Below are positions 19,631-50,625 of a stretch of 50,625 nucleotides of DNA, piece after piece. This DNA comes from Candidatus Woesearchaeota archaeon (GTDB taxonomy: Archaea; Nanobdellota; Nanobdellia; Woesearchaeales; GW2011-AR9), in NCBI GenBank assembly GCA_018657845.1, contig JABHWJ010000013.1, positions 1 to 50,625 on the forward strand, read 5' to 3'. Both the position numbers and the translations under genes were made by a program. How positions within the stretch are numbered: the first letter of the stretch is position 1; each line of letters begins with the position of its first letter. The notes beneath the pieces were generated by a model. That model did not search any database. It was not told the origin of the DNA and was given only the letters and a program-made list of their open reading frames with translations.

Positions 19631-19650
19631 AGGTTAAGGGAGCAAGAAAG

Positions 19651-19660: not shown

Positions 19661-19680
19661 GTTTTGGTGTTCTGGAGAAT

Positions 19681-20229
19681 ATGGACTTTCAAAATAATAA
19701 AAAGACATTCTTAGCTAAGTTAGATAAAAGTAAAAAAGGAGGAATTGATGAGAAAGTTATTTCTTTAATTGGAGTTATTAATAGTAAAGAGAATTATTAC
19801 ACTACTTCTTCTTGTTCTGGAAGAGTGGGGTTATTAAAGGGTTCTGAAAAGAAGAATGAAACAGAATGGTTAAAGGTTAGCCATGATTTGATTAAAGAAG
19901 ATTTCTTTGGATTGGAGAATAACAAGGGTTTGGTGTGGTTAAGGTTAGAGCCATTTATTATGCATATCTGTTGTAAGGATTTAGAATCGGCTAATATTTT
20001 GTTGGGTGGGGCTAAGAGGACGTATAAGAAAAGTTGTATTCTAAGTGTAAGTAACAAGTTTATTGTGGAAATAAGAGGGAGTGAACAATTAAAGATGCCT
20101 TTTTATGATGATGGAGAACTGTTATTCTCTGGAGAATTAACTTGGTTGAGAAATTTTATTAATGAGAAGTTGGGGAAGATTTGGGAAGGAATAAATAAGT
20201 TTGAGTTAATTCTAAAGGAATTAAAATAA
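19681..20229 (+). CDS. taw3: tRNA wybutosine-synthesizing protein Taw3
   Basis: A 182-aa TYW3/Taw3 methyltransferase, which N4-methylates the wyosine precursor at G37 of tRNA-Phe. Diagnostic features are DKSKKGGID near residue 15, TTSSCSGR at about 41-48, the PFIMHICCKDLESA segment, and a later VEIRGSEQLKMP. The length matches the family. It has a leaderless start from the TATA element shared with dcd. Its partners Taw1 and Taw2 are not in the window. It is convergent with the Cys-rich surface gene at 20245. Confidence 0.9.
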   Translation: MDFQNNKKTFLAKLDKSKKGGIDEKVISLIGVINSKENYYTTSSCSGRVGLLKGSEKKNETEWLKVSHDLIKEDFFGLENNKGLVWLRLEPFIMHICCKDLESANILLGGAKRTYKKSCILSVSNKFIVEIRGSEQLKMPFYDDGELLFSGELTWLRNFINEKLGKIWEGINKFELILKELK

Positions 20230-24500: not shown

Positions 24501-24819
24501 CTGTATTTCCATCGCTATCTTTTAGGATGAGTTTTTCTCCAACATTATTAAGAGTAAGAATAGCAGCTAGTGATTTAGTTTTACCTGCTTTTATTTTTAT
24601 TCCTGTAAGAGAAACGACTTTATTATCGTCTTCAATGGTCCAACCATTAAGAGTAATGGTTTCACCAGCATTGTAAAGTTCGATTCCATCAGGATTTGTG
24701 GAAAATTCATTAATAAATACTGTTCCGGTGTAATCGGAATCTGCTAATGCTGCTCGAGTAGTTAAAAGAAGAGCAACAATTGCTAATACAACAAAAAAGA
24801 TTTTGTGGTTTGTTTTCAT
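21514..24819 (-). CDS. large surface protein with lamin-tail and CARDB-like domains
   Basis: A 1101-aa exported protein. Signal peptide about 1-26. About 30-145 is a lamin-tail domain (FINEFSTNPDGIELYN, LNGWTIED, KLILKDSDGNTVDDASYG). It continues with repeated acidic beta-sandwich domains of the CARDB/NEW3 type, identifiable by alternating strands and motifs such as VTVKNTG-like VNVKNTGND. A C-terminal membrane helix (about 1073-1096) ends in KKRK. It is a candidate S-layer or envelope scaffold and a likely substrate for the glycosylation cluster. GAGGT about 11 nt before the ATG supports the start. It is paired with the 478-aa protein upstream, which shares its final beta domain and anchor. 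Confidence 0.75.
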   Translation of the reverse strand: MKTNHKIFFVVLAIVALLLTTRAALADSDYTGTVFINEFSTNPDGIELYNAGETITLNGWTIEDDNKVVSLTGIKIKAGKTKSLAAILTLNNVGEKLILKDSDGNTVDDASYGEDGDLAVPGKSKSLGRQHDGSSIWKEFDTPTLGSSNGNANEVPEGTISAQKLEEVNTEEKTLNLTNFITDADGDILAFTGAVATGGITCAIDGNELTLSLGNWEDNGKEGTCTFTANDGYEPTEFTVDATITSALTISGVKVNGDSVTSGEESTPVNPLEEVSVQFTVKNNLEYMVTGITAEVSSLDFTFEDTETFNLNPGASQVVILKESLSYEVPEGKYDVNIKAEGKDYMDKSLRNDLFDFVFVVEQEPADIVISNLKVLQEELTCKEFTKVVIEYTNAGDNIEDDVHFLISSDNEVIELDLPGVTINPNEVKTKSVKIYADELTEETTNTISVKALFRDDSTQSTTETVDIKRNSCIEDWTPETDGCWAIADGIAFEPALEVTLAEEGYDHLVTWYNSKLEDPVHTGSSYEFSPDGEGAHYLYAAINGEETEEWCILVSKIPIAESFETNIPADATDNQLEDWELVIENDYGKVEFGAVDLRDLTDLDEVIELSEHYLSIDTSIGMAEEFTNVDATITFYSTSFSNPVILKDNAVCEDCVGEQKSNTYVFTTFEGFSTYEVVDELGAGLTTTDKIEIEDATRETTFKKSFTVKNKGTLDSLTETKITSAINNDYQVKFSLTESGTFSEELNLGTLDPLEEVTAWVSVYVPEDADGKKDNLGDIKVEAKADATTVSSTIDLYLQAESDLIIEDVEVNGKSSGKFYPGEENEIEVNVKNTGNDDLEDVFITITIKNIDDDEDDLEEISENFDLDDGDDHKETIKFTLPSDLEEDEYELIIEVEGETSDGAEHADEETKDVGIERDSHNIVISSTSLVEKTYCNEYVSLSVLIKNIGTKDEDDVSIRVKNTDLGINLEKKNLKLEDYSDNDNDDTLTFTLDVTDAKEGEYTIEVEVYRDDILEDTEKLTLNVGPCESSSTADLTTPSLTQQIIDQLKGPGSVAETSVSGVTSSFRESNTYVALLGVLVILILVAVGLGVAVVTKKRK

Positions 24820-30508: not shown

Positions 30509-31813
30509 CTATTCTCCATCAAATTTTACTAAATGAAAAATATCATATCCTTGCAGTTTTTCTCTTCCTTTAAGGTCTGGGAGATCAATTATAATTGCAA
30601 TCCCAGATATGGTTCCACTTAATTTTTCCACTAGACGACAAGCAGCTTTCATAGTTCCTCCGGTGGCTAAGAGATCATCAATGATAACCACATTATCTTC
30701 TGCACTAATAGAATCTTTGTGCATTTCAATTTGGTCAATACCATATTCTAATTCATATTCCTGAGAAACAGTTTCAGGAGGAAGTTTTCCCTTTTTTCTT
30801 ATTAGCACCAAAGGAAGATTTAATTCGTGGGCAAGAACTGAAGCAAAAATGAATCCTCTAGAATCAATACCTACTATTTTTGTAGGGTTCTTTTTTTTAC
30901 AATATTCCTTTAGTTTAGTTATTGAATGTTTAAATGCTTTGGGATCTCTTAGTAAGGTAGAAACATCTCGAAACATTACTCCTTGTTTAGGCCAGTGAGG
31001 AGTTGTTCTGATTGATTTCTTTAAGTCAAATTCTTTTTCGTTTTCTGTTATTGGTTGAGATGGTTGTCCAACTTTGGGAATTGTATTAGTGAGTAAATTA
31101 GTTACTTTCTCGACATTTTGTTCAAATATTTCTAATACGGCTTCCCAGGTTACTGGTTCTTCGTTTTCTTTCCAACAATCATAATCTGTGGACATGGCAA
31201 TAGCAGCATAAGGGATATTAATTTCGTTAGCGAGGGTAGCTTCAGGAGCAATAGACATGTTAATAATGTCTGCGCCCCAAGCTCTGAACATATGAGATTC
31301 GGCCTTTGTTGAAAACCGGGGCCCTTCAATGGTAACTACAGTTCCTTTTTTATGGTGGTCTATTTTAAGTTCTTCAGCAGTTTTTACTAGAGCTTCTCGA
31401 AGTTGTTGATTGAAAGGATTGGCCATGGGAGTATGAGCTATTTTTCCTGGCTGGAATGATTCATGAAAAGAAATTTTTCTATGTCTGGTGAAATCAATGA
31501 ATTGATCAATGATAATAAAATCTCCTCGTTTGATTTCTTCCTTAAGACTTCCACAAGCAGTGGTTGCTAAGATATGGGTGCAACCAGCATCTTTGAGAGC
31601 TTGAATGTTGGCACGAAAGTTAATTTGGGTTGGAGGAATGGTGTGTTGTCGACCATGGCGAGCAAGGAGAACGACTTCAGTGTCATTTATTCTTCCAACT
31701 TTTAATGAAGAAGAAGGTTGACCATAACGTGTGTCAACAATTAGTTCATGAGCGTCTTGTAAAATATCTGGGTTGTTTAGTCCAGATCCACCGATGATTC
31801 CAATTTTTACCAT
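30509..31813 (-). CDS. fused MTA phosphorylase - adenine phosphoribosyltransferase
   Basis: A 434-aa two-domain enzyme. Residues 1 to about 250 are a trimeric-type purine nucleoside phosphorylase of the MTAP family (IGIIGGSG, LARHGRQH, TTACGSL, TIEGPRFSTKAE, NMSIAPEA, MSTDYDCW). About 270-434 are an APRT domain (VGIDSRGFIFA, and the PRPP loop VVIIDDLLATGGT at 375-387). The first half releases adenine from methylthioadenosine and the second turns adenine and PRPP into AMP, so the fusion would pass adenine along. It is separated by 1 nt from the adenosine kinase gene and follows SAH hydrolase. Some MTAP-like proteins prefer inosine or guanosine; the context favours MTA. Confidence 0.88.
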   Translation of the reverse strand: MVKIGIIGGSGLNNPDILQDAHELIVDTRYGQPSSSLKVGRINDTEVVLLARHGRQHTIPPTQINFRANIQALKDAGCTHILATTACGSLKEEIKRGDFIIIDQFIDFTRHRKISFHESFQPGKIAHTPMANPFNQQLREALVKTAEELKIDHHKKGTVVTIEGPRFSTKAESHMFRAWGADIINMSIAPEATLANEINIPYAAIAMSTDYDCWKENEEPVTWEAVLEIFEQNVEKVTNLLTNTIPKVGQPSQPITENEKEFDLKKSIRTTPHWPKQGVMFRDVSTLLRDPKAFKHSITKLKEYCKKKNPTKIVGIDSRGFIFASVLAHELNLPLVLIRKKGKLPPETVSQEYELEYGIDQIEMHKDSISAEDNVVIIDDLLATGGTMKAACRLVEKLSGTISGIAIIIDLPDLKGREKLQGYDIFHLVKFDGE

Positions 31814-37081: not shown

Positions 37082-39109
37082 ATGCATAAAAAGAGGTGTA
37101 TTAGAGATAGGAATAGTTGGGAGAGTAATAAAAAAGGTCAGCTAACAATTTTTATAATTTTAGGAATTGTGCTTATTATTGCAGTTGCTTTGGGATTGGT
37201 TTTATGGAAAGGGACAGCTGTTTTTAAGCCAAGTAAAATATTTCTTTCAGAAAAAGGAAAAGTAGAATCTCAGATAACTTCTTGTATTTCGATTATAGGG
37301 CAGGAGGCTCTAGATATCATCGGGGCAACAGGAGGATATATTGAAATTCCTGATGAGATTTCTAAGGATGGTGGAAGTCATCTTAAACTTTCTCCATTTA
37401 TACTTGTCCCCTATTGGAGTGTGGGGCAATCAAAAAGAATTCCTTCTATAGATTTAGTCAAGGAAAGAATTGATGCATATATGGAATCAAGATTGCCATC
37501 ATGTATTTTTGCACCCTCTGAATTATTTGATGAATTTGATATTGTTGAAAAAGGTCCAGTGGAATCAAATGTTGAATTAGTAGATGGAGGAATTATCTTT
37601 AATGTTCGATATGATCTAGAAGTTAGAAATAAAGATGGATCTGTAGTTACAGAATTAATTGATCACTTAGCAGAATCTGATATTAAACTAAAGAACCTTC
37701 ATGAGATGGCCAGTGCAATAATGGAAGCTGAATTTGAAGAGTTGAAGTTAGAAGATATAACTATGGATTTAATTTCTCTAGAACACCCAAAGGTTCCTTT
37801 AATTGGTTTTGATATGAGTTGTACTAAAAAGAAATGGAAAGTAAATGAGGTACAAAGTACTTTGCAAGATATGTTAAGAGTTAATGTGGGAGAATTAAAA
37901 GTAAGTGGAACAAATTATGTGGAATTTCCAGAAGAACTTCCCTATTATAATACTCATTATGTTTGGAATGTAGGTTTAGAGGATCCAGAAATTACAGTTA
38001 ATCTAAATTATCAAGATGGGTTTCCGTTTTATTTCCAGGTGACTCCAAGTCAAGGAAATACTATGAAAAGTGGAGTTCTAGGGGGACAAAGTTTGTTATC
38101 CTTTTTATGTTTGCAATCTTGGAAGTTTACTTATGATGTGAGTTATCCAGTGATGGTAGAATTAATTGATGATACTACTGGGTATTTGTTTAATATGGCT
38201 TTTACAGTTCATGTGGTGCGAAATCAAGCTAATCGGAATGAAGCTACCACTACAATAAATCCTTCGCTATTAATTGATATTGGGGGAGATAATGAAGTTT
38301 ATTGTGAAGATTATGCTAAAAAACCATTGTTAGTTAAAACGTATGAGTTAATTCAGAATGAAGAAACAGGAATTTCTGACCATAAGCCTTTGAAAGATGT
38401 AGAGATAAGTTATACTTGTTTAAAGTATACTTGTGAGATGGGTGAAAGTGATTACAATTATGCAAAATATGGCGACGTAGCAATTTTAGATGAGATGTTT
38501 CCTTATTGTCCAGGTGCTTTATTGAGAGGAAACAAAGAAGGATACAAAGAAGCAATGGTGAGAGTAGTAACGGACAAGTATAAAGAAGTTGAGTTGAACA
38601 TGATCCCTATTTATTTATTAGATTCAGAGAAAATAAAAGTTGTTAAACATGGGTTTAAAGATCCTTTAACTGGAATTGAGGATGTTGCGGGGGCAGATGC
38701 TTTGGAAAAAGGAGAATTGGCTTCAGTAAAAATAACTAACAAGAAAGGAGGGGAAGTTTTCCACGAAGCAACATATATTTATCGTATGGAGAAAGGAGGG
38801 TTTAGTTTATTAGATCTTAATGAAGAGGATTCAGCAAAAGCTGAAAGTAGTTTAGAGTTATTGGGAGGAACAGATTTCAGTTATGAATTGGAAATTTATG
38901 TTTTTGATGAAACTGATATCAAAGGAGGATATCAAGGAATTTGGGATGTTGATTGGGATTCTTTGAAAAGTGGAGGAGATGTCGTTTTCCATGTATTAGC
39001 TCAAGACTCATGGGATTCCGATGTTGATATGTTTGATTTTGTAGCAAATTTAGATGTGTATAGTTCATATGTAACGGTTCCAACAATCGGGAGCGTAGGT
39101 GAAGAATGA
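37082..39109 (+). CDS. KGQ-type membrane-anchored surface protein
   Basis: A 675-aa protein with a short basic N-terminus, then NKKGQLTIF (about 17-24) leading into one hydrophobic helix (about 22-42). This is the class III signal-like start of archaeal pilin-related proteins. The exported part is mostly beta, opening with a Cys and GQEAL and then ATGGYIEIP, a combination I associate with large conserved DPANN surface proteins. Cysteines are few. It is the first gene of the surface operon and overlaps the next gene by 4 nt (ATGA). It could be a pilus-like or secretion-platform component. Confidence 0.7.
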   Translation: MHKKRCIRDRNSWESNKKGQLTIFIILGIVLIIAVALGLVLWKGTAVFKPSKIFLSEKGKVESQITSCISIIGQEALDIIGATGGYIEIPDEISKDGGSHLKLSPFILVPYWSVGQSKRIPSIDLVKERIDAYMESRLPSCIFAPSELFDEFDIVEKGPVESNVELVDGGIIFNVRYDLEVRNKDGSVVTELIDHLAESDIKLKNLHEMASAIMEAEFEELKLEDITMDLISLEHPKVPLIGFDMSCTKKKWKVNEVQSTLQDMLRVNVGELKVSGTNYVEFPEELPYYNTHYVWNVGLEDPEITVNLNYQDGFPFYFQVTPSQGNTMKSGVLGGQSLLSFLCLQSWKFTYDVSYPVMVELIDDTTGYLFNMAFTVHVVRNQANRNEATTTINPSLLIDIGGDNEVYCEDYAKKPLLVKTYELIQNEETGISDHKPLKDVEISYTCLKYTCEMGESDYNYAKYGDVAILDEMFPYCPGALLRGNKEGYKEAMVRVVTDKYKEVELNMIPIYLLDSEKIKVVKHGFKDPLTGIEDVAGADALEKGELASVKITNKKGGEVFHEATYIYRMEKGGFSLLDLNEEDSAKAESSLELLGGTDFSYELEIYVFDETDIKGGYQGIWDVDWDSLKSGGDVVFHVLAQDSWDSDVDMFDFVANLDVYSSYVTVPTIGSVGEE

Positions 39110-42100
39110 ATACTAAAAAACTGGTGACTTTATTTATCATTATGTTAATGGTAATGCTCCCAGTAGTTTCAGCTGTGGAAATTTCAGAAGTGGTGGTAAG
39201 GGATGTCACTGAAACTGGAGCAACAGTAGAATGGTTGACTGATGAAGAAGCTGATAGTGCAGTTGATTATGGTTTAGATAAAGAAAATTTTTCTAATGAA
39301 ATGAATGAAGAAGAGGTTTTAGAACATTCTGTGGCTTTGGTTGGTTTGGATTCTGGAAGTGATTATTATTTTAAGGTAATGAGTGGTGATGCAGAAGATG
39401 ACAATAGTGGAGATTTTTATTCATTCAAAACTTTAGAAGGAGAGGTTGTTGAGGAAGAAGGTTTTAAGTTAGAGATTGAAGTTCCAGAATATCTTGCAGA
39501 AGAAGAGGTTGATCTTACAGGGGTAGCTTCGGTAGGAAGTAAGGTTAAATTATATCTTGATGGGTTATTAGAAGGGATTGTAACTGTTAGTGAAGAAGGA
39601 ACTTTTGAATTTTTGGAAGTAGATTTGACGAGAAATGAGTGGAATACTTTATTGTTTTTAGCTAAGAGTGGAGAGGAGGAGATTAGTAAGGAGTTTAAGG
39701 TATTTGTAGATCTGAAGGCTCCACAGATAAGTTTGATTGGAGAGGTTCCTGAATTTCTTTTGGAAGCTGAATTAGCTATTAAGGGTAAGATCGGTGAGGA
39801 AGCCCAAGTAGTGGTTTTACTTAATGAACAAGAGGTTTATAATAATAAGACTAGTGAGTTTTTAGTTGATTTAACTTTGGTTGAGGGAGAGAATACCTTA
39901 TTAATTAGTGCAGAAGATTTAGCTGGAAATAAAGAATTTGTAGAAAGAACTATTTTATTAGACATGTCTGCTCCCGAAGTAAGTTTTGATTTTGAAAAAG
40001 GGATGGAATATTATCAAGGGAATGCAGAAACACAGATTTTTGGACAAACAGAAGCAGGAGCAAAATTATATCTTTATTATTTTAAACAAACAGCTTCTGG
40101 AAAAGATCCAGACTTTAGTAGGGCTTTTGGTGAAGCAACTGCCGATGAGAATGGAAGCTTTGTTTTTGACGAAGTAGATTTAGATCACCCGCCTACATTT
40201 ACTTTATTAGAGAAATTAGGCCCTAAACAAGTACCACAAGAATTATTAGAAGTAGAGATTTCTTCTTATGAAGGGGCAGATCAACAAGAAAATTGGATAA
40301 CTTATGTTTATGTTATTGCTGAAGACAAAGCAGGTAGGGTAGGTTATGCAGAGAAAACTATTCAGATTCATTCTTGTTTCTCTGGAGAGTTGAAGTTTAA
40401 TGTTATGCCATTGACTGAATTTCAGTTACCTAGACGTTTGGATCCAGATTTATTAGATGACGGAAGACAGGTTGTTACAATGGTTTTAGATTTAGATTAT
40501 TTGGGACAAGGTCAACCGTTAACAGATGCAAATGGGAATATTATTTCTGAAGGTTTTGAGATTAGTGATATTAATTTTAGAAAAGCTTGTACTCATGGAA
40601 TGATTGATGATGAGAGCACGGCATTAGCTTGTAAGATTTTGCCAGAGACTCCACAGAAAAAAGTTCCTAATGCCAATAAGGATGCTTGGTTTGTTCAATA
40701 TACTTTAAACTCTGCTGAAGATTTTAGTGAAAAGGAAGATGATTTTTGGAATGATTTTAAGAAAAGGCAAGTTGTGTTTCCAATAAAAGCAGAGATAAGT
40801 TATCGAGAAAGATTAGCCCCTGGACAACAAGGTTATAATTCTAATCAATATGGGGGACAACAGAGCCCATATAGTCAATATAGTCAATACAGTGGTTCTG
40901 GAAGTAGTCTTTATGGAGGTAGTAGTTATGGAAGCGCATATGGCAGTAATTATGGTAACAATGTTTATGGAAGCCAATTATATGGTCCTTTGAAAACACA
41001 AACGGTTTGTTTAAATCCTGGTTATTTCGTAGATATTCCAATTGATAGTGAAGATTTAATTCCCGATTGGTTGGCTGATGATGGAGTTAGAATTCTGAAT
41101 AATACAATAGAAACAATTGATACAATAAATGAATATTTGTATGATGCAATGGTTATTGCGGGAGTTACTTGCGGAGCGAGTTTTATATTGAGGATGGCAG
41201 CTAGATGGTATAGGTTATTCCAACAGAAATGGGAACCTTATCTTTCAGAAGCTGAAAAACTTGCTGCGGCAGTAGGTGTAACTACAGGAGAAAAAGGCCA
41301 ATGTCCTTTGGATCAAGGTGGACTATTTGCTGATGACACAATTGCTAATTGGAAGAAGTTACAAAATAGTGATCATGCAGACAAGCAAACAGCTAATTTC
41401 CCAGAAAATTTAGATGATCTTAGTTTGAATCTGAAATTGAATTGTCCAAAAACTGCCAGTGCTTGGAAAATAGAAGATGGAATAGATCAAGTTTTCAAAT
41501 ATTCTTGTTATCGGGTGTTCTGTAAAGCGGCCCCCGCTAGATGGACTGAGGATAAAACAGAAACTAAGGTTCAAGCAACCATATTAAAGGGTCAGAGTTG
41601 TGGAGGAACAACTGGAAAAGGATTACCTCTACAGAAATTAGAAAATTGTGATAAAGAATTTACTTACATGAGTACTTCGTTGGGTTTGAAAGGAATCCAG
41701 CAAACTGGGACTGAAAACTTGAGAGATTGTTGGAAAGGTCCTAATGGAGTAATCTATTTTTATTTTAAGCAGAAGAATACAAATGTAGATGAACGAAATA
41801 AAGGGATATATCATTTAACACCATTAGATCATATTACTGGTTCTTTTGGAGATATTCCTGCAGATGATTTAGTTGTTTATCAACCAAAAGGTTCAGATAA
41901 TTATATTGTGGGGGTAGATGACACTTGTAATAATCTTTGTAAAAGGACTCCTGGATTTGAGGCTTTGAAAAAGGGACAAGGTTTAACTAAAGCTTGTAAG
42001 TTAGAGAAAAAAGACGGTTCTATTGAAGTGAATACTGGAGAATTTACTGCAGGATATACTAAAGATTGTTTTATTAATGAAAAAACAAAAACTTTACAGC

Positions 42101-44526
42101 AGTGTATCTGTGTGGGAGCTGAAGAGAAACAAGAAACTTATGCGGCGAGAACGGCATTAAGGGCGGATGGAAATAATGTCGAAGAGTGGTCTTATCGACA
42201 AGATCGGATTTTCCAAGAATCTAATGAACAACAAGGAACTTATTACCCAAAATGGAGATATTATGGGGGAAGAGATTTCCCAGCTAGTTTTGGTTTAAAC
42301 CATTTATTAGATTATACGCGTCCAGATAATGAGGAGATTGCAGAAGTCAATCCAAATACTCAACATATTGGGGCAGTGCAAAGTTTGTGCATTAGTGGAG
42401 TGTACAATAGGTTAAAATTATTAAGAGACACTTTAGATTATGTGGCACAGTGTATTACTGATGCGAAACATAATAGTATAAATGATGCAGGAATTTGTAA
42501 ACATTTAATGAGTCAATATGTTTGTGGTTTGGTATACAAGATAATTGCATATGCTGCTAAAGGATGTTTACCAATAACTTTTAGTGATGAAGAATCTAAG
42601 GGTAGTTTTGATAAATTAGGAAAAGGAATAGAACTTGGAATTGGTTCTCTTTATGAAACAGTAGATACTTCTTTTGAAGATTTGAAAAGTGAGTTTGGTA
42701 ATGCTAAATTAAATGAATTTGTATCTGGAGGAGTAGAAGGTTTTACTCGATCGGTGTGTATGGCAGCATTGGGTTATGATTGGGTTTTTGATATGGATTT
42801 CTTAATGGATGCAGCTTATGCAACTCCATTTAAGACAACTGCCTTAGTGATACCAGAAAGAGAATTAGTATCTTATGATCCAACTCAGAAATCAGCTATC
42901 TATAGTTATAGCTTGGGAGCGTCATTATTTCCGGGATGTGATATCCGAAGTTGGAATGTTAAATTGAAATGTGTGGGTCCAGAAGACATGGGCAAGCCAG
43001 GAGTAGATTGTACCCAACAAGGCTGTGACTGTGCGAAGATCTCAGGAGCTTCTCCATTCTCTTACGATCGGGAAAGGATAATGGAGGGTGGAACTGGATT
43101 TGATGTAAGTGCCGGAGGATATGCTAGTTTACCTGTACCTTCGCCACAAATTATTACTAGCCAATATAGATATGATCACGTTGTAGTAGAGTTGATGTTA
43201 GAGCAATATGCAGATCCATCGACTTGTTTTGATGAAGGATATTTCACTGGAAATGTAGGGAGATTCTATTTCCCAGTTGTAGAAGTTGGAAGTGAGCCAA
43301 GTGTGGATTGTAATGTTGATTTAGAGTCAGGTAGATTTATTTGTAGTGGGTTGTCTGAGTTTTTTAGTACCGGAGCAGGTTACTTTGAATGGCCATTTGT
43401 GGATTGTGCAAATCAGGAATCGGGAGGGTATGTTGCATGTAATAGTCCAAATGGAATTATAAAAGGAGATCCCTTAATTATAAGACCACACATAACTACT
43501 GATGGGACGCAAGATTTGTGTATGTATATGACTTTAAATGGAGGTCCACAATCAATCACGAAAGTAGGAAAGATTCCTAAATTAAATGTGGGGTCAATAA
43601 GTCCTACTTATTCTTTTAGTCCAAGTTTAGATAATAGTTGGTTTGTGGGAGGGTTAGGAGAGAATATTTTCTTGGACCAGGGAACAAGTAATCTTGGGTG
43701 TAATGATGCACTTGCAAAGGAGAAAACTGGTGATCCAATAAAGTCTAATGGGGTATTTTCTGTATCTTTTACAGGAGGAAGTATTGCTGGAACTTTTAAA
43801 GTGAAGGTGGGTGCGACTGTTGAAACTCCAGGTTATACAAAAAGTGAAGAACTCTTGATTAACCCTGCCAATAGTGGGCAAGATTTTAATGTTAATCAAA
43901 TAAATCAAATACCCTTTGTGGTAGGCGGATATAAAATTAAAAACATTTTGAAGAGTACTTTTGTAGGGCCGAATGGGAAGTGTACTTGGAAGACGCAATC
44001 AGCTAACACTCCTGGGATGCAAACAACTGGGACGAAGACATTAACATTAAGTATGGAATTAAGGTATCCTGGATTGGGAGGAAGTTGCGAATTAGGAGTT
44101 ACTACCAAAATACCAGGTTCACAATTTGGAGTTACAGGACATCAACAACCAATAGTAATTCAGGAATCTAAAATATCTTTGGTTAGCCAAGATGTCCAAG
44201 AAACTTATGATTACTTTTTGGCAGGATCATATGCAGATACTTTTACTCGAGCAATTAATATGGTCCAAGGCAATGAGGGAGGAGAGAAGGAAATCCATGC
44301 TTATTATTTGGCTGTTGCGGCGAGAGTTTTACAAGGGGCAAATCAAGCAGAGAATACAAATCCTAAAGCGTATAAAGATGAAGTTGTTGGTTTGATTACC
44401 CAGTTTGCTAATGAAAATTATGGTCCAGAGATTAAAGGAAGGAATGATTACAAGAAAATAGCTGCGTATATGAAGGAGATTGGGAACGCTTTTGGAGTAA
44501 GTGGGGATATTTTGTCTAAAATTTGA
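39106..44526 (+). CDS. giant surface protein with FN3, Ig-like and prion-like regions
   Basis: An 1806-aa protein. Signal peptide about 1-23. About 25-115 is a fibronectin type III domain (TGATVEWLTDEEADSAVDYG, SDYYFKVMSGD). About 120-400 are Ig-like beta domains with VDLTGVASVGSKVKLYLDG-type repeats, as in adhesins. About 570-630 is a low-complexity Gly/Ser/Tyr/Gln/Asn tract with repeated SQYSQYS and YGSxYG. A hydrophobic helix lies near 680-705. The rest is a long Cys-containing region and a helical C-terminus. The internal helix suggests a membrane-spanning topology with domains on both faces. It is probably an adhesin or scaffold for the peptidases of the operon. Confidence 0.7.
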   Translation: MNTKKLVTLFIIMLMVMLPVVSAVEISEVVVRDVTETGATVEWLTDEEADSAVDYGLDKENFSNEMNEEEVLEHSVALVGLDSGSDYYFKVMSGDAEDDNSGDFYSFKTLEGEVVEEEGFKLEIEVPEYLAEEEVDLTGVASVGSKVKLYLDGLLEGIVTVSEEGTFEFLEVDLTRNEWNTLLFLAKSGEEEISKEFKVFVDLKAPQISLIGEVPEFLLEAELAIKGKIGEEAQVVVLLNEQEVYNNKTSEFLVDLTLVEGENTLLISAEDLAGNKEFVERTILLDMSAPEVSFDFEKGMEYYQGNAETQIFGQTEAGAKLYLYYFKQTASGKDPDFSRAFGEATADENGSFVFDEVDLDHPPTFTLLEKLGPKQVPQELLEVEISSYEGADQQENWITYVYVIAEDKAGRVGYAEKTIQIHSCFSGELKFNVMPLTEFQLPRRLDPDLLDDGRQVVTMVLDLDYLGQGQPLTDANGNIISEGFEISDINFRKACTHGMIDDESTALACKILPETPQKKVPNANKDAWFVQYTLNSAEDFSEKEDDFWNDFKKRQVVFPIKAEISYRERLAPGQQGYNSNQYGGQQSPYSQYSQYSGSGSSLYGGSSYGSAYGSNYGNNVYGSQLYGPLKTQTVCLNPGYFVDIPIDSEDLIPDWLADDGVRILNNTIETIDTINEYLYDAMVIAGVTCGASFILRMAARWYRLFQQKWEPYLSEAEKLAAAVGVTTGEKGQCPLDQGGLFADDTIANWKKLQNSDHADKQTANFPENLDDLSLNLKLNCPKTASAWKIEDGIDQVFKYSCYRVFCKAAPARWTEDKTETKVQATILKGQSCGGTTGKGLPLQKLENCDKEFTYMSTSLGLKGIQQTGTENLRDCWKGPNGVIYFYFKQKNTNVDERNKGIYHLTPLDHITGSFGDIPADDLVVYQPKGSDNYIVGVDDTCNNLCKRTPGFEALKKGQGLTKACKLEKKDGSIEVNTGEFTAGYTKDCFINEKTKTLQQCICVGAEEKQETYAARTALRADGNNVEEWSYRQDRIFQESNEQQGTYYPKWRYYGGRDFPASFGLNHLLDYTRPDNEEIAEVNPNTQHIGAVQSLCISGVYNRLKLLRDTLDYVAQCITDAKHNSINDAGICKHLMSQYVCGLVYKIIAYAAKGCLPITFSDEESKGSFDKLGKGIELGIGSLYETVDTSFEDLKSEFGNAKLNEFVSGGVEGFTRSVCMAALGYDWVFDMDFLMDAAYATPFKTTALVIPERELVSYDPTQKSAIYSYSLGASLFPGCDIRSWNVKLKCVGPEDMGKPGVDCTQQGCDCAKISGASPFSYDRERIMEGGTGFDVSAGGYASLPVPSPQIITSQYRYDHVVVELMLEQYADPSTCFDEGYFTGNVGRFYFPVVEVGSEPSVDCNVDLESGRFICSGLSEFFSTGAGYFEWPFVDCANQESGGYVACNSPNGIIKGDPLIIRPHITTDGTQDLCMYMTLNGGPQSITKVGKIPKLNVGSISPTYSFSPSLDNSWFVGGLGENIFLDQGTSNLGCNDALAKEKTGDPIKSNGVFSVSFTGGSIAGTFKVKVGATVETPGYTKSEELLINPANSGQDFNVNQINQIPFVVGGYKIKNILKSTFVGPNGKCTWKTQSANTPGMQTTGTKTLTLSMELRYPGLGGSCELGVTTKIPGSQFGVTGHQQPIVIQESKISLVSQDVQETYDYFLAGSYADTFTRAINMVQGNEGGEKEIHAYYLAVAARVLQGANQAENTNPKAYKDEVVGLITQFANENYGPEIKGRNDYKKIAAYMKEIGNAFGVSGDILSKI

Positions 44527-44554
44527 TAATTTAATATTTGTTTAATTTAATAAA

Positions 44555-45082
44555 ATGAGAGAAAAAAGAGGGAAGGCGAGGACGATTGTATTGTTATTAC
44601 TATTTTTAATAGTGTTCTTGGTATTGATATATGGTGGTTATTTTTATAAATTAATGGAAAAAGAGAAAGTAGAATTGGACGAAGATTTAGGATTGGGAGA
44701 AGAACCAGATATTGGAGAGGTAACTGATTCTGAGGAGCCTGAAGTGGTGGAAGATGTTTCAGAAGAATCTGAAGAAACTTTAGTCGGATGTAATAAACAT
44801 CTTGAGGAATTAAATTGTGTTAAAGAGGGTTGTTTGTGGGAAAGTGATTTAATTTTATGTTATGATTACGGAGAGATTGAAGAAGAGTGTAGTTTTAGTG
44901 AGAGTGAAAATGATTGTTTGTTGTTTGGTTGTATTTGGAATGAAAAAGATCTTTCTTGTGAGGAATTTGAAGAGACGTCTGATGTTTTAGGTTGTTTTGA
45001 TTTTATTGATAAGCAGAATTGTGAGGCAGAGAATTGTTTTTGGGATGCAATAGAAGAACTGTGTGAGGAAAGAGAAATATGA
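44555..45082 (+). CDS. membrane protein with three CxW Cys repeats
   Basis: A 175-aa protein with one N-terminal helix (about 10-32), a very acidic linker (about 38-75) and three copies of a 25-30-residue repeat. Each has the form C-x8/9-C-x4-C-x-W-x6-C: CVKEGCLWESDLILC, CLLFGCIWNEKDLSC and CEAENCFWDAIEELC are the cores. The C..C.W spacing resembles PSI/plexin-like disulfide modules of extracellular proteins. Its last 4 nt overlap the start of the large peptidase gene, so the two are coupled, and it may tether or assist folding of that protein outside the cell. Confidence 0.65.
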   Translation: MREKRGKARTIVLLLLFLIVFLVLIYGGYFYKLMEKEKVELDEDLGLGEEPDIGEVTDSEEPEVVEDVSEESEETLVGCNKHLEELNCVKEGCLWESDLILCYDYGEIEEECSFSESENDCLLFGCIWNEKDLSCEEFEETSDVLGCFDFIDKQNCEAENCFWDAIEELCEEREI

Positions 45083-48000
45083 AGAAAGGATTTTTATTAA
45101 TGTTTTTTTTTGGGTTGTTTTTTTTAAGTGCAGGATTAGTTCAGGCAATAATTCCTTATTCAATTTTGGTTCAAGACTGTGATCCGTATATGCTTAGTGA
45201 GACTGGATGTGCTACTAATGATCTTACTGAAGACGTTTATTATTTTTATGATGAAGTGGAGAGGAGTTGGAAGTATCAATTAGACTCTGGACTTACTTTA
45301 GGGACTGGAGAATGGTTAGAATTAAATGAGATCTCTATAGATATACAAGATAATGTTTTTGATCCAGGGATTGAAAGTTGTGGACAACATGATTTTATTT
45401 ATCGTGAATATTGTTGGCTTAATAATTTTTTGATAGAAGCGCATGAAGATTCAATAGAATGGTTGTATGATTCTGAAGAAGCTTATGATCCAGTTTATTT
45501 AGATGGGTTAGATGTAATCTGTAAATGGCATCGACAAGAGGAAATAGATTCTGGACCTTGGTCGCCTGCCACTGGTCTCAACCGCCCATTTGAAGGGAAG
45601 ATTTTTTTTGTTCCTGAATTATTAGAAACAGAATATCCAGTGGAAAAAATATTATATCCTGGGGAGGATTTGGGAGTTGTTACTACTGCGTTTGCATGTG
45701 ATAATTCTCAAATGAAATTAAAACAAGAAGAAGAATTAAATTTTGAATTTTCTAGTTTGGGCCAATATTGTGATTATTCTTTTGAATGCGAAACGGGAGT
45801 TTGTGCAGATGGGGTTTGTTGTGATCAGAAATGTGATTGGGGGTGTTCATCTTGTGCTTCAGAAGGAAACGAAGGATCTTGTGTTCAAAAACCAGAAAAC
45901 ACAACTTGCGGAAATGGTAAAATTTGTACTCTAGAAGGAGAGTGTAAAAAAGAGTTGGGAGTGAAATGTAGTCTAGGAGAAGAGTGTTTAAGTGGTAATT
46001 GCAACAGCGGGGTTTGTTGTAACGTAGAATGTGAAGGTGGTTGTGAGTATTGCAATAAGCCTGGAAAGGTGGGGACTTGTATTTTTAGATATAGTGGTTA
46101 TCCTGGGTTAGATTATTGTCCAGCTGGAGAAGTTTGTGATGGTTATGGTGGATGTAAAGAAGGAAAAGTTGTGTGGTTGGCAAACGAACAAGATGTTCCT
46201 CCGGAAGAAGAGTTCACTGATGAAGTGATTATAGATGATCCCGAAAGTGTAAACTATTTGTGTAAGAATTGTTATGTTACTCCTTATCAAGAAACTGAGG
46301 CGGTTGGAAAGGCATCGGATGGTTTTTTATTGAATGGAGTTAGATTGTTACTCAATGACCCTAGTTCTCCTTATCTATCTGCTAGAAAAAATAATTATGG
46401 TACAATAGAATTAATCAGATCTTTAGAAGCAGCCTCTTGTTATATGAATCAGAATTTTGGGGGAGTAAAATTACAGATAAACGATTTGAGTAAAGAGAAA
46501 GGGGGAGAAATATCTGGACATGCTAGTCACGAGAGTGGGTTGGATGTAGATACTGGAATATTTACTTTTTCTAACGGGAATTTTGAAGGAGAATTAAGTA
46601 AGAAATGTTTATCTGAGATTGTTGTTGAAGTTAATTCTGAAGGAAAGGAAGTGAAGAAAGTTGGTTGTAAGGCGGGAAAGGTTTATGATTCTTTTAATAA
46701 TCCAGAAGCCTTAAGAGCCAATTGGGAATTTTTGAAAAAGTTAAATCAAATTTATGATGTACAATTTATTTTCTTGGATAAAGAATTGATAAATCCAATT
46801 AAAAAATATGCCACTTCTATTGGCGAAGGGCATCTTTGGGGGGAAGTAGGAGGTGTGCTTAAACATTGGCCCAATCACCATCATCATTATCACATCAGAT
46901 TAAAGTGTCCACTTGGAGATAAAAAGTGTAAGGGTGCAGGAGCGGTTAAGGAAACCCCCTGTGAAAGTGTTGATGAAGAAATAAATAATTGTGAAAGCAC
47001 TTTCAAAAAAGAAGGTTTTCAATGTATGTTTAAGGGAAGTGAAGGAGATGCAATTACTTCTGGATGTAAAGTTACAGAAGCATGTTATGGTGGAGAATGT
47101 TGTTCAGCAGGAGATTATTGTTGTCCAATCAGTGGAGAGAAAGGAAAATTAGTAGGGAAAGAATTAGATGAGACCGCAGTAATTGTAGAAAGTTTAGAGT
47201 GGAAAGAAACTAATGTTGAAGGGGCGGATTTGTATATTTATGAAACTCAATGTAAATCTAAATTAAATGAGTTGAATGATAGGGTTGAGGGGATTGTGTT
47301 ACCTAAAGGATTAGCTAAAGAGTCTACCTTAGGAGAGGTATGTGCAGATGCTTCATTTGAAACAATGATAATTGGAAGTCTTCCATATCCGACAAATCTT
47401 AAAAAATGGGAAGATGCAATAAAAGCAGAAGGCTTACCTGGAAAAACATGGATGGGGAAATTAGATTCTAATGGTCCAACTGATGAAAAGTTCATGGAAG
47501 ATGTTGGAAGAGATTCTTTGCTTTTTATTCCATGTACTACTGATTTAAGTCAACCCTTAGAAATATTTTATTTTTTGCATGGAAATAGGGGATTTGGTGG
47601 TCCAAAAGATTTGAATGATTTTAAAACTAGGGCGGCTCCTAAAATTAAGGAAATGGGTTTAGATGGAAGAAATATTATTTGGGTGATTCCGGAATTACCT
47701 TGGTCTTCAGGAGACGAATCTAAGCAAGCGCTAGCTAAAGGAACTGGAAGGGCAATTCCTAAGAGGCAAAAAAGTCTTTTGGCAAAGGGAAATTTGGAAG
47801 GAATAGACTTTGTTCAATTTCATCAAGATATCATGGTGATTATAGAAGAGCTTGAACCAAGTTTTGATGAAAGTTTAGTTACTTATATTTCTATGGCTGG
47901 TCACAGTGCAGGAGGAGCGGCCTTATGGTGGGCAGCAGAAAGTGGGGCTTTAGAAACTTTAGCAGTTAATAAAATAACTTTTTCTGATGCCGATTATTTT

Positions 48001-49017
48001 GGTGGAGCGAAAAAAGTATGGGCGAAGTATTTTGGTGGAGGAAAAGTTCCAGGGGGACTGGGAGCAGAAATTGGAGCAGAATTAAACTTGTTAGTTCAGG
48101 ATCCTAGCAACAGGGGTGCCCATAATCCTACAGCTTCGGCGTTGAGTTTTATTAAAAAATGGAAAGGAAATCTTCCAGATAATATTAATTATGTTCCTTT
48201 AAAGATGAAGCATAGGCCAATTGGGAAATATTCCTTATCTTGGGTTAGTGATAATCCTCCTATTGAGGCTGTAGATATTCCTTATGTCAATAGAGAAATA
48301 ATTGAAGATGGTTCTAAAAAAGAAGTAAAAGTTTATTTTTATTTTCATGGTAATACTAAATCTACCCAGAGTAAGAGTTTTGTAGAAAGTTATGTAGAAA
48401 ATTATGATCTGTTAGAAAATATGGCTGGGTTAGAAGAAAAGACTGGAGAGAAAGGAGTTTTGGTTGTGTTGAAAGGAGCTTCTCCTAACAGTGTGGGAAA
48501 TTCTGGACAGTGGATGAAAGGGACAAGAGGAGATGAATCTTGGTTTAGTTGTTTTTATGATGAAGCTTTAGTGAAGTTAGATGATTTGGGTTTAAAGCCT
48601 ACTTCAATGAGGTTGATGTCTCATAGTGCAGGGGGTAAGGCGATTAGGAATATTGTTAATTCTGGGTTTTTGGGCGAATCGGGATTGTTGCCTTTAGAAT
48701 CTGTATCTTATTATGATTCTTGTTATGGGGGTTGGTGTAGTGATGTTATGGATGAAATTGTGGATGAAGAAGCAGAGATTTTTGCTATCTGGTCTCCAGA
48801 AGGAGCTTCTCCCCAGAATAAGGTTTCAGCATTTAGTTTTTTGACTGGGATGAGTAAGGAAGAAGTGAAAGGAATGAAAAATGGAGATGTATATGAAGGA
48901 AAGGAAGGATTTGAAAATACTGTTTATGCTGTTAAGGTAGAAGAGTCTCATGGAGATGTAGTGAGGAAATGTTTTTACAACTATATTTCTGATGGGGAAT
49001 GTGAGGCGGCTAGTTAA
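45079..49017 (+). CDS. secreted M74 (MepA-type) peptidase fused to two serine-hydrolase domains
   Basis: A 1312-aa exported protein. Signal peptide about 1-23. About 25-225 is an unassigned N-terminal region, and about 228-360 a Cys-rich module (CDYSFECETGVCADGVCC type). About 395-625 is a MepA/M74 metallopeptidase domain with GHASHESGLDVD (zinc ligands H484 and D491) and H600-xx-H603-x-H605 in HHHHYHIRLKCP. About 800-1010 and 1090-1300 are two alpha/beta hydrolase-like domains, each with a nucleophile elbow, GHSAGG (S943) and SHSAGG (S1183). MepA cuts peptide cross-links of murein; the hydrolase domains could de-esterify or de-acetylate. All catalytic residues I can check are present. Confidence 0.8.
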   Translation: MKKGFLLMFFFGLFFLSAGLVQAIIPYSILVQDCDPYMLSETGCATNDLTEDVYYFYDEVERSWKYQLDSGLTLGTGEWLELNEISIDIQDNVFDPGIESCGQHDFIYREYCWLNNFLIEAHEDSIEWLYDSEEAYDPVYLDGLDVICKWHRQEEIDSGPWSPATGLNRPFEGKIFFVPELLETEYPVEKILYPGEDLGVVTTAFACDNSQMKLKQEEELNFEFSSLGQYCDYSFECETGVCADGVCCDQKCDWGCSSCASEGNEGSCVQKPENTTCGNGKICTLEGECKKELGVKCSLGEECLSGNCNSGVCCNVECEGGCEYCNKPGKVGTCIFRYSGYPGLDYCPAGEVCDGYGGCKEGKVVWLANEQDVPPEEEFTDEVIIDDPESVNYLCKNCYVTPYQETEAVGKASDGFLLNGVRLLLNDPSSPYLSARKNNYGTIELIRSLEAASCYMNQNFGGVKLQINDLSKEKGGEISGHASHESGLDVDTGIFTFSNGNFEGELSKKCLSEIVVEVNSEGKEVKKVGCKAGKVYDSFNNPEALRANWEFLKKLNQIYDVQFIFLDKELINPIKKYATSIGEGHLWGEVGGVLKHWPNHHHHYHIRLKCPLGDKKCKGAGAVKETPCESVDEEINNCESTFKKEGFQCMFKGSEGDAITSGCKVTEACYGGECCSAGDYCCPISGEKGKLVGKELDETAVIVESLEWKETNVEGADLYIYETQCKSKLNELNDRVEGIVLPKGLAKESTLGEVCADASFETMIIGSLPYPTNLKKWEDAIKAEGLPGKTWMGKLDSNGPTDEKFMEDVGRDSLLFIPCTTDLSQPLEIFYFLHGNRGFGGPKDLNDFKTRAAPKIKEMGLDGRNIIWVIPELPWSSGDESKQALAKGTGRAIPKRQKSLLAKGNLEGIDFVQFHQDIMVIIEELEPSFDESLVTYISMAGHSAGGAALWWAAESGALETLAVNKITFSDADYFGGAKKVWAKYFGGGKVPGGLGAEIGAELNLLVQDPSNRGAHNPTASALSFIKKWKGNLPDNINYVPLKMKHRPIGKYSLSWVSDNPPIEAVDIPYVNREIIEDGSKKEVKVYFYFHGNTKSTQSKSFVESYVENYDLLENMAGLEEKTGEKGVLVVLKGASPNSVGNSGQWMKGTRGDESWFSCFYDEALVKLDDLGLKPTSMRLMSHSAGGKAIRNIVNSGFLGESGLLPLESVSYYDSCYGGWCSDVMDEIVDEEAEIFAIWSPEGASPQNKVSAFSFLTGMSKEEVKGMKNGDVYEGKEGFENTVYAVKVEESHGDVVRKCFYNYISDGECEAAS

Positions 49018-49019
49018 AG

Positions 49020-49601
49020 ATGAGTTTTAATGTAAGAGGAGTTCCAAGGGTTGTTTTAGTTTTGTTAATTATTGGAGGGCTTGTTTTTTTAAGTGCTTTA
49101 ATCTTAGGAGTTACGAATTTGAGTGGGGCTTCTGGAGGAGAAGGAGATGCACTTCTTTATCAGAATGGTCCGTTCGGTGAAGGATTAGTGTTGAAGAATT
49201 TTCAATGGTGTGATTATGTAGATATTTATTATAGATGTATTAATCCAAGGAGTACTTTTGATGTTCCAGGGAGTGTATCTTTTACTTTAACTGTGGAAAG
49301 TGATGTAGTGAGTGGAGGGGTACAGTTGGTAGAAAATTATGCAATTAAGGATAAAGAAGGAAATTATCATTTAGTGATGGATGAAGCGAATGCTATTTAT
49401 TTTGAAGGGATTAGTTCTGAAGATAAGGATAAAGTTTTTTTTAAGAATTCATTTAGGTTAGAAGAAGATCTTAGCCCGGGAGATTATATTTTGGAGTTAG
49501 AAGTAGAGAATCTTTTGTTTGGGGGAAAGTTGACGTTGGAAGAAGAAATTAGTGTTGAGGAAATTTTACCAGAAGATCCGGCAGGGGTGGAGTACCAATG
49601 A
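49020..49601 (+). CDS. membrane-anchored beta-domain protein
   Basis: A 193-aa protein with one N-terminal helix (about 9-32) and an exported beta-sandwich domain (about 45-180). The strand pattern is VSFTLTVESDVVSGG, NYAIKDKEGNYHLVM, and later SPGDYILELEVENLL, similar to CARDB-like adhesion modules. It has two cysteines (CDYVDIYYRC) that probably form a disulfide. It starts 2 nt after the large peptidase gene and overlaps the next peptidase by 4 nt. It is likely an accessory of the peptidases. Confidence 0.6.
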   Translation: MSFNVRGVPRVVLVLLIIGGLVFLSALILGVTNLSGASGGEGDALLYQNGPFGEGLVLKNFQWCDYVDIYYRCINPRSTFDVPGSVSFTLTVESDVVSGGVQLVENYAIKDKEGNYHLVMDEANAIYFEGISSEDKDKVFFKNSFRLEEDLSPGDYILELEVENLLFGGKLTLEEEISVEEILPEDPAGVEYQ

Positions 49602-50625
49602 AAAGATTATTCTGGATTTTGATGATTGTTTTAGTTATGTTTGGTGTTCAAGCACAAGTGGCACCTATTTCTGGAGGGGGGAGTAATGATCCTGGTGTGC
49701 CCCAAGTTGTTTTATCTGGAGATATATTGCAAGATTGTCCGCATTTAGATTTTAATAGCCACAGTAATTCGGAGGCTGTGGGGAAACAATCAGCTGGAAG
49801 TTTGGTTAGTGGAGTGAAGTTACCAGATAGATCTTATTTTAATAAGAATTGGCAATCTTCCAACAATGACGAGCAATATGGGACGATAGAATTAGTAAAT
49901 ACTTTGGAGTTAACTGCTTGTTATATGAATTTGATGTTTGAATCTACTCCTCTTAAAGTTCATGATTTGAGTGTACAAAATGGTGGAAAATTGAATCCAC
50001 ATAAAAGTCATCAGAATGGTTTGGATGTCGACGTGGGATTTTATTTATATGAGGGAACTAGTAATTATGTTAATGTTTGGAAAGAAATGTGTGATCGGGA
50101 GGGAGAGGGAAAAAATTGTTATGCTGCAGGCACTGGTAAATATAATGTAGATCTTCAATTCTTACATCCAGATTCTTTAACGACCAATTGGTGGTTTATT
50201 AAAACGCTAATTAATGTTTATGATGTTCGAGCCATTGCTTTTGATCAAGTTTTACAAGATGTTTTGGAAACTCATGTAAGGGATGTTTTAGGTGAGGGAG
50301 AAGCATGGGATAGACATAAACCCTTGTTTGCTAAATGGCCTGGACATCATGATCATTATCATATTAGGTTGAAATGCCCAAAAGGAGATTTGCACTGTGA
50401 GGGAAGTAAAGCAGAGAAGAATTTTCCAGGAGAGGGGTTTGTAGATCCAGGAGTTCCATCACAAGAGCTTGCGGAGCAGAATACACAAACAACTGGACAA
50501 CAATTACCTGGAGAGCAAACTACTACGGGAGCCTCACCAATTGGAGGGAGTACCCAAGGAGGAGTACAACAATCAACAATTCCTAATTGTGCTTATTGTC
50601 AGAAAATAGATAGTTCTTGGTTAAA
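49598..50625 (+). CDS. secreted M74 (MepA-type) peptidase, partial at window end
   Basis: The visible 342 residues start with a signal peptide (about 1-20). The M74 domain covers about 45-270: PHKSHQNGLDVD provides zinc ligands H138 and D145, and H250-xx-H253-x-H255 in HHDHYHIRLKCP provides the catalytic and third ligand positions. The CPKGDLHC end retains the disulfide seen in MepA. A Gln/Thr/Gly-rich linker (about 285-325) and a Cys-containing start of another domain follow before the sequence ends. It is a paralogue of the M74 domain in the 1312-aa protein, sharing YGTIELxxxLExxxCYMN. Confidence 0.82.
   Translation, partial: MKRLFWILMIVLVMFGVQAQVAPISGGGSNDPGVPQVVLSGDILQDCPHLDFNSHSNSEAVGKQSAGSLVSGVKLPDRSYFNKNWQSSNNDEQYGTIELVNTLELTACYMNLMFESTPLKVHDLSVQNGGKLNPHKSHQNGLDVDVGFYLYEGTSNYVNVWKEMCDREGEGKNCYAAGTGKYNVDLQFLHPDSLTTNWWFIKTLINVYDVRAIAFDQVLQDVLETHVRDVLGEGEAWDRHKPLFAKWPGHHDHYHIRLKCPKGDLHCEGSKAEKNFPGEGFVDPGVPSQELAEQNTQTTGQQLPGEQTTTGASPIGGSTQGGVQQSTIPNCAYCQKIDSSWL

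What the first reader, a model, noticed from the sequence alone, without database searches (positions are those of the whole stretch)
46262..46929. Intact murein-endopeptidase-like (M74) domain in an archaeal surface operon
The domain has every residue of the MepA active site I can check: H484, D491, H600, H603, H605 and the RLKCP disulfide. Archaea do not make murein. An exported, intact enzyme is best explained by action on bacterial cell walls (predation, competition, or feeding on a bacterial neighbour), or on an unknown cross-linked archaeal envelope polymer.
Basis: partly seen in the sequence, partly recalled or inferred. Interest (0 to 1): 0.85.

Follow-up and report, generated by a model that had tools for sequence, protein, structure and literature searches.

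The report
Archaeal wall-cutting enzyme in surface operon
A tiny archaeon that shows no sign of making a bacterial-type wall carries two intact copies of a bacterial wall-cutting enzyme, placed in a conserved surface gene cluster whose last position holds a different bacterial-wall-cutting enzyme in most of its relatives, which suggests that these archaea attack or open the walls of bacteria.

Summary
Residues 408-626 of the 1312-aa ORF (45079-49017) form an M74 domain: Pfam 60 bits, AlphaFold pLDDT 91, best PDB match MepA at E 1e-11. All six catalytic histidine/aspartate positions are kept. A second M74 domain sits in the ORF that runs off the contig end (49598-50623). The contig is archaeal (TFB, RadB, archaeal S2, GatD; kin to Woesearchaeota), and archaeal M74 domains separate from bacterial ones on one branch (98/92).

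The genes lie in an operon whose first gene has homologs in 48 of 49 genomes of the family. The position after a 193-aa gene is a variable slot. Among 26 genomes where it is visible, 17 encode a secreted recognised peptidoglycan hydrolase there (SLT, Amidase_2, M15, M23, lysozyme-like or M74), often with an esterase-like domain.

No Mur ligase or PBP was found in the host genome. Best reading: a core surface apparatus of Woesearchaeales that delivers interchangeable murein hydrolases to bacteria, with M74 as one module. The fold and context are shown; the bacterial target is inferred (about 0.7); the lifestyle is open. Archaeal murein hydrolases were already proposed (PMC8204110, PMC12352652). 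I found no report of M74 or of the exchangeable slot.

The parts
37082..39109 (+). 'P675': 675-aa membrane-anchored surface protein with an N-terminal pilin-like hydrophobic segment; first gene of the conserved operon
   Evidence: Homologs at 37-51% identity in most of the 48 of 49 family genomes with a match; 172 of 279 phylum genomes at E<=1e-25
39106..44526 (+). 'P1806': 1806-aa secreted surface protein with fn3/Ig-like N-terminal domains
   Evidence: Sub-threshold Pfam matches to fn3 and Ig-like families; homolog directly follows P675 in nearly every family locus examined; in L171, another family of the order, its homolog carries a C-terminal Amidase_2
44555..45082 (+). 175-aa membrane-anchored cysteine-rich protein with trefoil-like repeats
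   Evidence: Trefoil match 22 bits against cut-off 21; start of the next gene overlaps its stop; no homolog seen in the other operons
45079..49017 (+). 1312-aa secreted protein: signal peptide, cysteine-rich region, M74 domain, two alpha/beta-hydrolase-like domains
46300..46956 (+). M74 domain 1, with H481 H484 D491 H600 H603 H605 R607 and C610/C617
   Evidence: PF03411 60.1-64.5 bits; residues; model pLDDT 91.4 matching MepA
47398..48252 (+). alpha/beta-hydrolase-like domain H1, putative triad S943-D970-H1045; homologous domains are fused to M74, SLT, M23 or M15 in relatives
   Evidence: 40% identity with the L022 domain; profile match E 5e-68; invariant triad in 8 aligned domains. No Pfam match
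48289..49014 (+). second alpha/beta-hydrolase-like domain H2 (SHSAGG motif)
   Evidence: Putative triad aligned with H1; no Pfam match and no confident model
49020..49601 (+). 'P193': 193-aa membrane-anchored protein that precedes the hydrolase slot
   Evidence: Homologs at E 1e-13 to 1e-29 directly before the slot gene in the relatives
49598..50625 (+). slot gene: secreted protein of at least 342 aa with M74 domain 2, truncated by the contig end
   Evidence: M74 65.1 bits; 4-base overlap with P193; same position as the hydrolase genes of relatives
49775..50422 (+). M74 domain 2, with all six catalytic His/Asp positions and the cysteine pair
50588..50620 (+). linker motif CAYCQKIDSSW, resembling the C(x)nCxxIDxxW motif of slot proteins
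   Evidence: Motif in 14 of 28 slot ORFs of relatives and 0 of 368 other ORFs in the same loci; seen in the window ORF

Best explanation
The two M74 domains are zinc DD/LD-endopeptidases of the MepA kind, secreted by a Woesearchaeales (DPANN) archaeon. They are the catalytic modules of a conserved cell-surface operon: P675 (anchored, pilin-like), P1806 (large adhesin-like), P193 and a variable hydrolase slot. Shown by computation: the fold, an intact active site, operon conservation, and replacement of M74 by other peptidoglycan hydrolases at the slot in sister genomes; export signals are read by eye. Inferred: the apparatus touches a bacterium, the hydrolase cuts its murein (M74 at peptide cross-links, the linked esterase-like domains perhaps removing acyl groups), and this opens the wall for attachment, nutrient uptake or killing. 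The catalytic module is exchanged over evolution, probably to fit different bacterial targets.
For: M74 sequence and fold and conserved active site. Archaeal contig. Archaeal M74 domains separate from 32 bacterial ones plus MepA on one branch, 98/92, so this is not a recent contaminant; relatives include a single-cell genome. Operon marker in 48 of 49 family genomes with the slot after P193. Slot proteins carry SLT in 8 genomes, M15_4 in 6, Amidase_2 in 3, and M23 or a phage-lysozyme-like domain in others. 8 of 38 SLT ORFs in the family lie in the slot against 0.045 expected, P 2e-16. Profile searches found these domains almost only in slot genes or in the large protein after P675. H1 hydrolase is fused with M74, SLT, M23 or M15 in different genomes. 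M74 + Amidase_3 in one polypeptide in G114. Amidase_2 fused to a P1806 homolog, and SLT, SLT+M23 or VanY in the syntenic large protein of other families. No Mur ligase or PBP in the genome. An independent study proposed that large SLT proteins of Woesearchaeota and Pacearchaeota act on bacterial walls (PMC8204110).
Against: No enzyme activity, expression or bacterial partner is shown. No recognised peptidoglycan-binding domain was found in the window proteins. Four of 26 visible slots have no recognisable peptidoglycan hydrolase domain and five have only weak or uncertain ones. Some slot domains (GDSL, metallophosphatase, FGE-sulfatase-like, endo/exonuclease-phosphatase) are not murein-specific. 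The genome is 89% complete, so absent pathways could be missing sequence. The window's slot gene is cut off.
Confidence: 0.7

Rival explanations
1. The enzymes act on a cross-linked polymer of the archaeon's own envelope, or of an archaeal host such as a pseudomurein maker, as wall-remodelling or entry enzymes.
For: The operon is near-universal in the family, as expected for housekeeping. Slot proteins also carry esterases, phosphatases and sulfatase-like domains that could act on glycoproteins.
Against: No Mur ligase or PBP in the genome; in relatives the Mur-ligase-type genes are one or two per genome, as for folylpolyglutamate synthase, never a full set. From general knowledge, lytic transglycosylases and muramyl-amidases need MurNAc and D-amino acids, which pseudomurein lacks. 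The repeated swapping of murein-specific enzymes is hard to explain if the substrate is not murein.
Confidence: 0.13
2. The enzymes are murein hydrolases used only for scavenging dead bacterial wall material or as diffusible antibacterial weapons, not for contact with a living bacterial partner.
For: Archaeal peptidoglycan hydrolases that kill bacteria are known (PMC12352652). Some family members have small stand-alone M74 proteins of about 250-300 aa.
Against: Here the hydrolase sits in an operon with large membrane-anchored surface proteins and, in another family of the order, is fused to the large surface protein, which points to a cell-attached apparatus. Near-universality in the family is unlike the patchy distribution reported for weaponised archaeal hydrolases (PMC12352652).
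Confidence: 0.14
3. The M74 genes are bacterial contamination of the assembly or a very recent transfer without function.
For: M74 is otherwise a bacterial family, best represented among the hits by Myxococcota and Bdellovibrionota.
Against: The contig carries archaeal TFB, RadB, S2 and GatD. Archaeal M74 domains split from bacterial ones with 98/92 support. They occur in 12 of 49 family genomes and in two further families of the order, and the genes overlap conserved archaeal operon genes.
Confidence: 0.01

Closest known systems
MepA, penicillin-insensitive murein endopeptidase (MEROPS M74, Pfam PF03411; PDB 1tzp, 1u10)
   Same: Fold, zinc-site and catalytic residues, RLxCP cysteine pair; sequence profile E 1.7e-38
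   Different: MepA is a stand-alone periplasmic enzyme of a murein-making bacterium; here the domain sits inside large secreted archaeal proteins with alpha/beta-hydrolase domains, in a different sequence clade
[quoted passage not shown]
   Same: Archaeal lineages that include this one; large surface proteins carrying or accompanied by murein hydrolases; the large protein after P675 in L175 and L176 has C-terminal SLT
   Different: That report names only the SLT domain in one protein family; here M74, M15, M23, Amidase_2 and others swap at a fixed operon slot, and the window genome has no SLT. That the two are one system is my inference
Archaeal modular peptidoglycan hydrolases that kill bacteria (PMC12352652)
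   Same: Archaeal enzymes with murein-hydrolase domains; reported as prominent in Nanoarchaeota
   Different: Those were selected for a cell-wall-binding domain; none is recognised here. M74 and MepA are not mentioned in the main text; its supplementary table could not be read
Polymorphic toxin systems of bacteria (general knowledge)
   Same: Conserved delivery genes with an exchangeable C-terminal or last-gene enzymatic module
   Different: No immunity genes and no known secretion apparatus seen; the modules are largely envelope-directed hydrolases

Membership tests
Peptidase M74 (PF03411) | Profile score above curated cut-off | tested here: met
   60.1 and 65.1 bits against 25
Peptidase M74 (PF03411) | MepA fold | tested here: met
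   Model pLDDT 91.4; MepA hits E about 1e-11, TM 0.65-0.68, rmsd 5.6-6.5 A
Peptidase M74 (PF03411) | Zinc ligands and catalytic His/Asp (MepA H113, D120, H211, H206, H209; numbering from general knowledge) | tested here: met
   H484, D491, H605, H600, H603 aligned and invariant; zinc geometry itself not measured
Peptidase M74 (PF03411) | Cleaves D-Ala-mDAP or mDAP-mDAP cross-links of murein | not testable with these tools
   Needs purified protein
Archaeal modular peptidoglycan hydrolases (PMC12352652) | Catalytic plus cell-wall-binding domain | tested here: not met
   Pfam scan of both proteins finds only M74
Archaeal modular peptidoglycan hydrolases (PMC12352652) | Export signal (32% of those enzymes have one) | tested here: inconclusive
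   Sec-like N-termini read by eye in both M74 proteins; no signal-peptide predictor was available
Woesearchaeota/Pacearchaeota SLT proteins (fam00969) | Murein-like lytic transglycosylase domain | tested here: not met
   No SLT match anywhere in the window genome; 28 of 49 family genomes have one, 8 in the operon slot
Conserved P675-P1806-P193-hydrolase operon described here | Gene order P675, P1806, P193, secreted hydrolase | tested here: met
   37082-50625, with an extra 175-aa and 1312-aa gene pair inserted between P1806 and P193
Pseudomurein endoisopeptidases | Pseudomurein endoisopeptidase domain | tested here: not met
   No such match in Pfam scan of the operon proteins

The most novel reading that the evidence does not exclude
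The P675-P1806 operon is a core contact apparatus of Woesearchaeales and related orders of the class for exploiting living bacteria. Its last module is a polymorphic murein hydrolase tuned to the wall of the current bacterial partner, so the enzyme type at the slot may record which kind of bacterium each archaeon lives on or preys upon.
Probability: 0.45. Interest if true: 0.9.

Novelty: new variant of a known kind. Interest (0 to 1): 0.75.

Why it matters
All cultivated DPANN archaea need archaeal hosts (abstract of PMC11291902), and whether the many uncultured Woesearchaeota live on bacteria is an open question. A family-wide surface operon with interchangeable murein-cutting enzymes makes this directly testable: the enzymes can be expressed and assayed, and the operon proteins can be tagged in enrichments. 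It also adds M74, M15, M23, amidase and lysozyme-like modules to the lytic transglycosylases already noted in these archaea, in a setting (surface apparatus, exchangeable catalytic slot) that points to contact with living bacteria.

Tried and rejected
Structure of the two C-terminal hydrolase domains: the model was poor (mean pLDDT 38.8, two-sequence alignment) and was not used; their identity as alpha/beta hydrolases rests on the GHSxGG motif and conserved Ser/Asp/His. Sequence search of the PDB with them gave nothing significant. Idea that the window slot gene continues into an NlpC/P60-like domain as in L022: the L022 protein has no Pfam or PDB match and no homolog was found in the window genome, so this is left open. 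Recent bacterial transfer or contamination: rejected by contig content and tree. Co-occurrence of M74 and SLT across genomes: 9 of 12 M74 genomes have SLT against 19 of 37 others, too weak to use. A first active-site table had a numbering error of four residues and was replaced. My notebook entry that the divergent M74 of G045 has lost a zinc-ligand Asp was wrong: the Asp aligned with D120 is kept.

Full report
WHAT WAS CLAIMED AND WHAT IS THERE. The 1312-aa ORF at 45079-49017 (+) contains a Pfam Peptidase_M74 match over residues 408-626, 60.1 bits against a cut-off of 25. The named residues are present at the stated positions. In an alignment with 20 archaeal domains and E. coli MepA, the positions H481, H484, D491, H600, H603, H605 and R607 are invariant; the C610/C617 pair is shared with MepA and with part of the archaeal set. 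The predicted structure is confident (pLDDT 91.4, pTM 0.87) and its best solved matches are MepA (E about 1e-11), followed far behind by Hedgehog and LdcB/VanY domains. A profile of the 34-sequence alignment finds only MepA in the PDB, E 1.7e-38. A second M74 domain, 65.1 bits, lies in the ORF that starts at 49598 and runs off the contig.

THE GENOME IS ARCHAEAL. The same contig encodes TFB, RadB, archaeal-type ribosomal protein S2, an AMP-phosphorylase-type enzyme and GatD, all archaeal or archaeal/eukaryotic families. The genome is 863 kb in 44 contigs, 89% complete. The nearest named M74 loci are Woesearchaeota, including a single-cell genome, AG-343-C14 (L022), which makes binning error an unlikely explanation. 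The bacterial M74 relatives in the genome collection are mostly Myxococcota and Bdellovibrionota. In trees of the domain, the archaeal sequences fall on one side of a single branch (SH-aLRT 96, where one divergent viral row fell among them; bootstrap 98, SH-aLRT 92). This is an established archaeal lineage of the domain, though the direction and date of the original transfer are not determined. Within the phylum, M74 was found only in the window's own order: 12 of 49 genomes of the family and a few in two other families.

DOMAIN PARTNERS. The C-terminal half of the 1312-aa protein has two alpha/beta-hydrolase-like domains with GHSAGG and SHSAGG motifs and a putative Ser/Asp/His triad (S943, D970, H1045), which aligns in eight such domains. 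The first (H1) is 40% identical to a domain of the L022 protein, where the order is hydrolase then M74. Other archaeal M74 domains are fused to a PGA_cap (CapA-like) domain (L016) or to Amidase_3, an N-acetylmuramoyl-L-alanine amidase (L020). The L024 locus encodes, two genes after its M74 protein, a 1280-aa protein with metallophosphatase, SLT and phosphodiester glycosidase domains.

THE OPERON AND ITS SLOT. Searching the 675-aa protein encoded 6 kb upstream (37082-39109) gave homologs in 48 of 49 family genomes and in 172 of 279 phylum genomes at E<=1e-25. I fetched the surroundings in 38 family genomes and mapped the genes. Where the contig reaches far enough the order is constant: P675, a 1500-2300-aa homolog of the window's P1806, a homolog of the window's 193-aa protein (P193), then one or two secreted proteins of 400-1065 aa (one outlier of 1731 aa), often followed by enolase and a RelA/SpoT protein. 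In the window the same order holds, with a 175-aa gene and the 1312-aa M74 gene inserted between P1806 and P193, and the second M74 gene in the slot after P193. Most adjoining genes overlap by a few bases or are a few bases apart.

WHAT OCCUPIES THE SLOT. Pfam scans of the slot proteins found SLT (8 genomes), M15_4 carboxypeptidase (6), Amidase_2 (3), M23, and a phage-lysozyme-like domain with DUF2272. Weak or sub-threshold hits were Hydrolase_2, Glucosaminidase and M74 (G045; clear by my own profile). GDSL, metallophosphatase, FGE-sulfatase-like and H1 domains accompany them. Of 26 genomes with a visible slot, counting the window, 17 have a recognised peptidoglycan hydrolase, 5 have weak or uncertain ones (including DUF2272 in G032 and an M15 domain in a nearby ORF of G025) and 4 have none. 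The enrichment is not chance: 8 of 38 SLT-bearing ORFs in the 49 genomes are in the slot against 0.045 expected from the DNA it occupies, P 2e-16. Profiles built from the slot domains and run over all ORFs of the fetched loci hit essentially only slot genes or the large protein after P675; the profiles came from slot sequences, so this control is one-sided. A linker motif C(x)nCxxIDxxW is in 14 of 28 slot ORFs and none of 368 other ORFs; the window slot gene ends at the contig edge with CAYCQKIDSSW.

THE FUSED FORM. In 20 loci from other families the P675 gene is kept and followed by a protein of similar size. In L171 this is a sequence homolog of P1806 with a C-terminal Amidase_2. In L175 (SLT and M23), L176 (SLT) and L174 (VanY, with a sub-threshold SLT) the protein is related by position only. 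These C-terminal hydrolases suggest that the large SLT proteins noted earlier in Woesearchaeota and Pacearchaeota (PMC8204110) belong to the same system; that identification is my inference.

TARGET. No Mur ligase and no PBP transpeptidase was found in the window genome, while the same searches ring in the bacterial controls. In relatives, a Mur-ligase-type protein occurs once or twice in 13 of 49 genomes, which I read as folylpolyglutamate synthase, not a murein pathway. Enzymes that share no fold but share murein as substrate replace each other at one locus, and in one relative M74 and a muramyl-amidase are one polypeptide. Bacterial murein is therefore the most economical substrate. What remains inference: the activity itself, the surface location, and whether the outcome is attachment, feeding or killing.

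RELATION TO KNOWN WORK. Archaeal peptidoglycan hydrolases able to kill bacteria have been shown (PMC12352652), with Nanoarchaeota noted as rich in candidates; M74 or MepA is not mentioned in the main text, and its supplementary table was not available to me. Large SLT proteins and possible bacterial hosts were proposed for Woesearchaeota and Pacearchaeota (PMC8204110). I found no report of M74 in archaea or of the operon with an exchangeable hydrolase slot, but the library holds only open-access papers. Hence 'new variant of a known kind'.

Noticed in passing
L020:1-2082 (G114) and L016:1513-3573 (G227): Single archaeal polypeptides that combine M74 with Amidase_3 (L020) or with a PGA_cap (CapA-like) domain (L016).
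   Followed up: partly
L024:3331-15637 (Woesearchaeota SI074_bin25): A second kind of surface locus: pilin-like genes, an anchored M74 protein, a cysteine-rich membrane protein, and a 1280-aa protein with metallophosphatase, SLT and phosphodiester glycosidase domains.
   Followed up: partly
L022:1995-3935 (single-cell genome AG-343-C14): Gene near the M74-hydrolase gene with the CAYCxxIDxxW motif followed by a Cys/His-motif domain resembling NlpC/P60 by eye; no Pfam or PDB match.
   Followed up: partly
window 30509-31813 (-): One 434-aa ORF fuses S-methyl-5'-thioadenosine phosphorylase and adenine phosphoribosyltransferase.
   Followed up: no
window 2376-8957 (-): Cluster of membrane glycosyltransferases (PMT-type and family 2), possibly for surface protein glycosylation.
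   Followed up: no
window 21514-24819 (-): 1101-aa surface-type protein with Lamin Tail and CARDB domains.
   Followed up: no
L102 and L103 (IMG/VR contigs, 86 and 118 kb): Viral contigs with a 623-aa protein holding a divergent, sub-threshold M74-like domain with HVSHQSGRDVD and HANHYHIR motifs, near phage-type genes.
   Followed up: partly
slots of G023, G006, G016, G047 (L124, L137, L149, L159): Slot proteins without a recognised murein hydrolase but with FGE-sulfatase-like, GDSL, metallophosphatase or endo/exonuclease-phosphatase domains; the 1731-aa one has no Pfam match.
   Followed up: no
window 1-20000: GC skew stays strongly positive (0.22-0.48) even across 1-9 kb where the genes are on the minus strand, and is near zero at 20-26 kb.
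   Followed up: no
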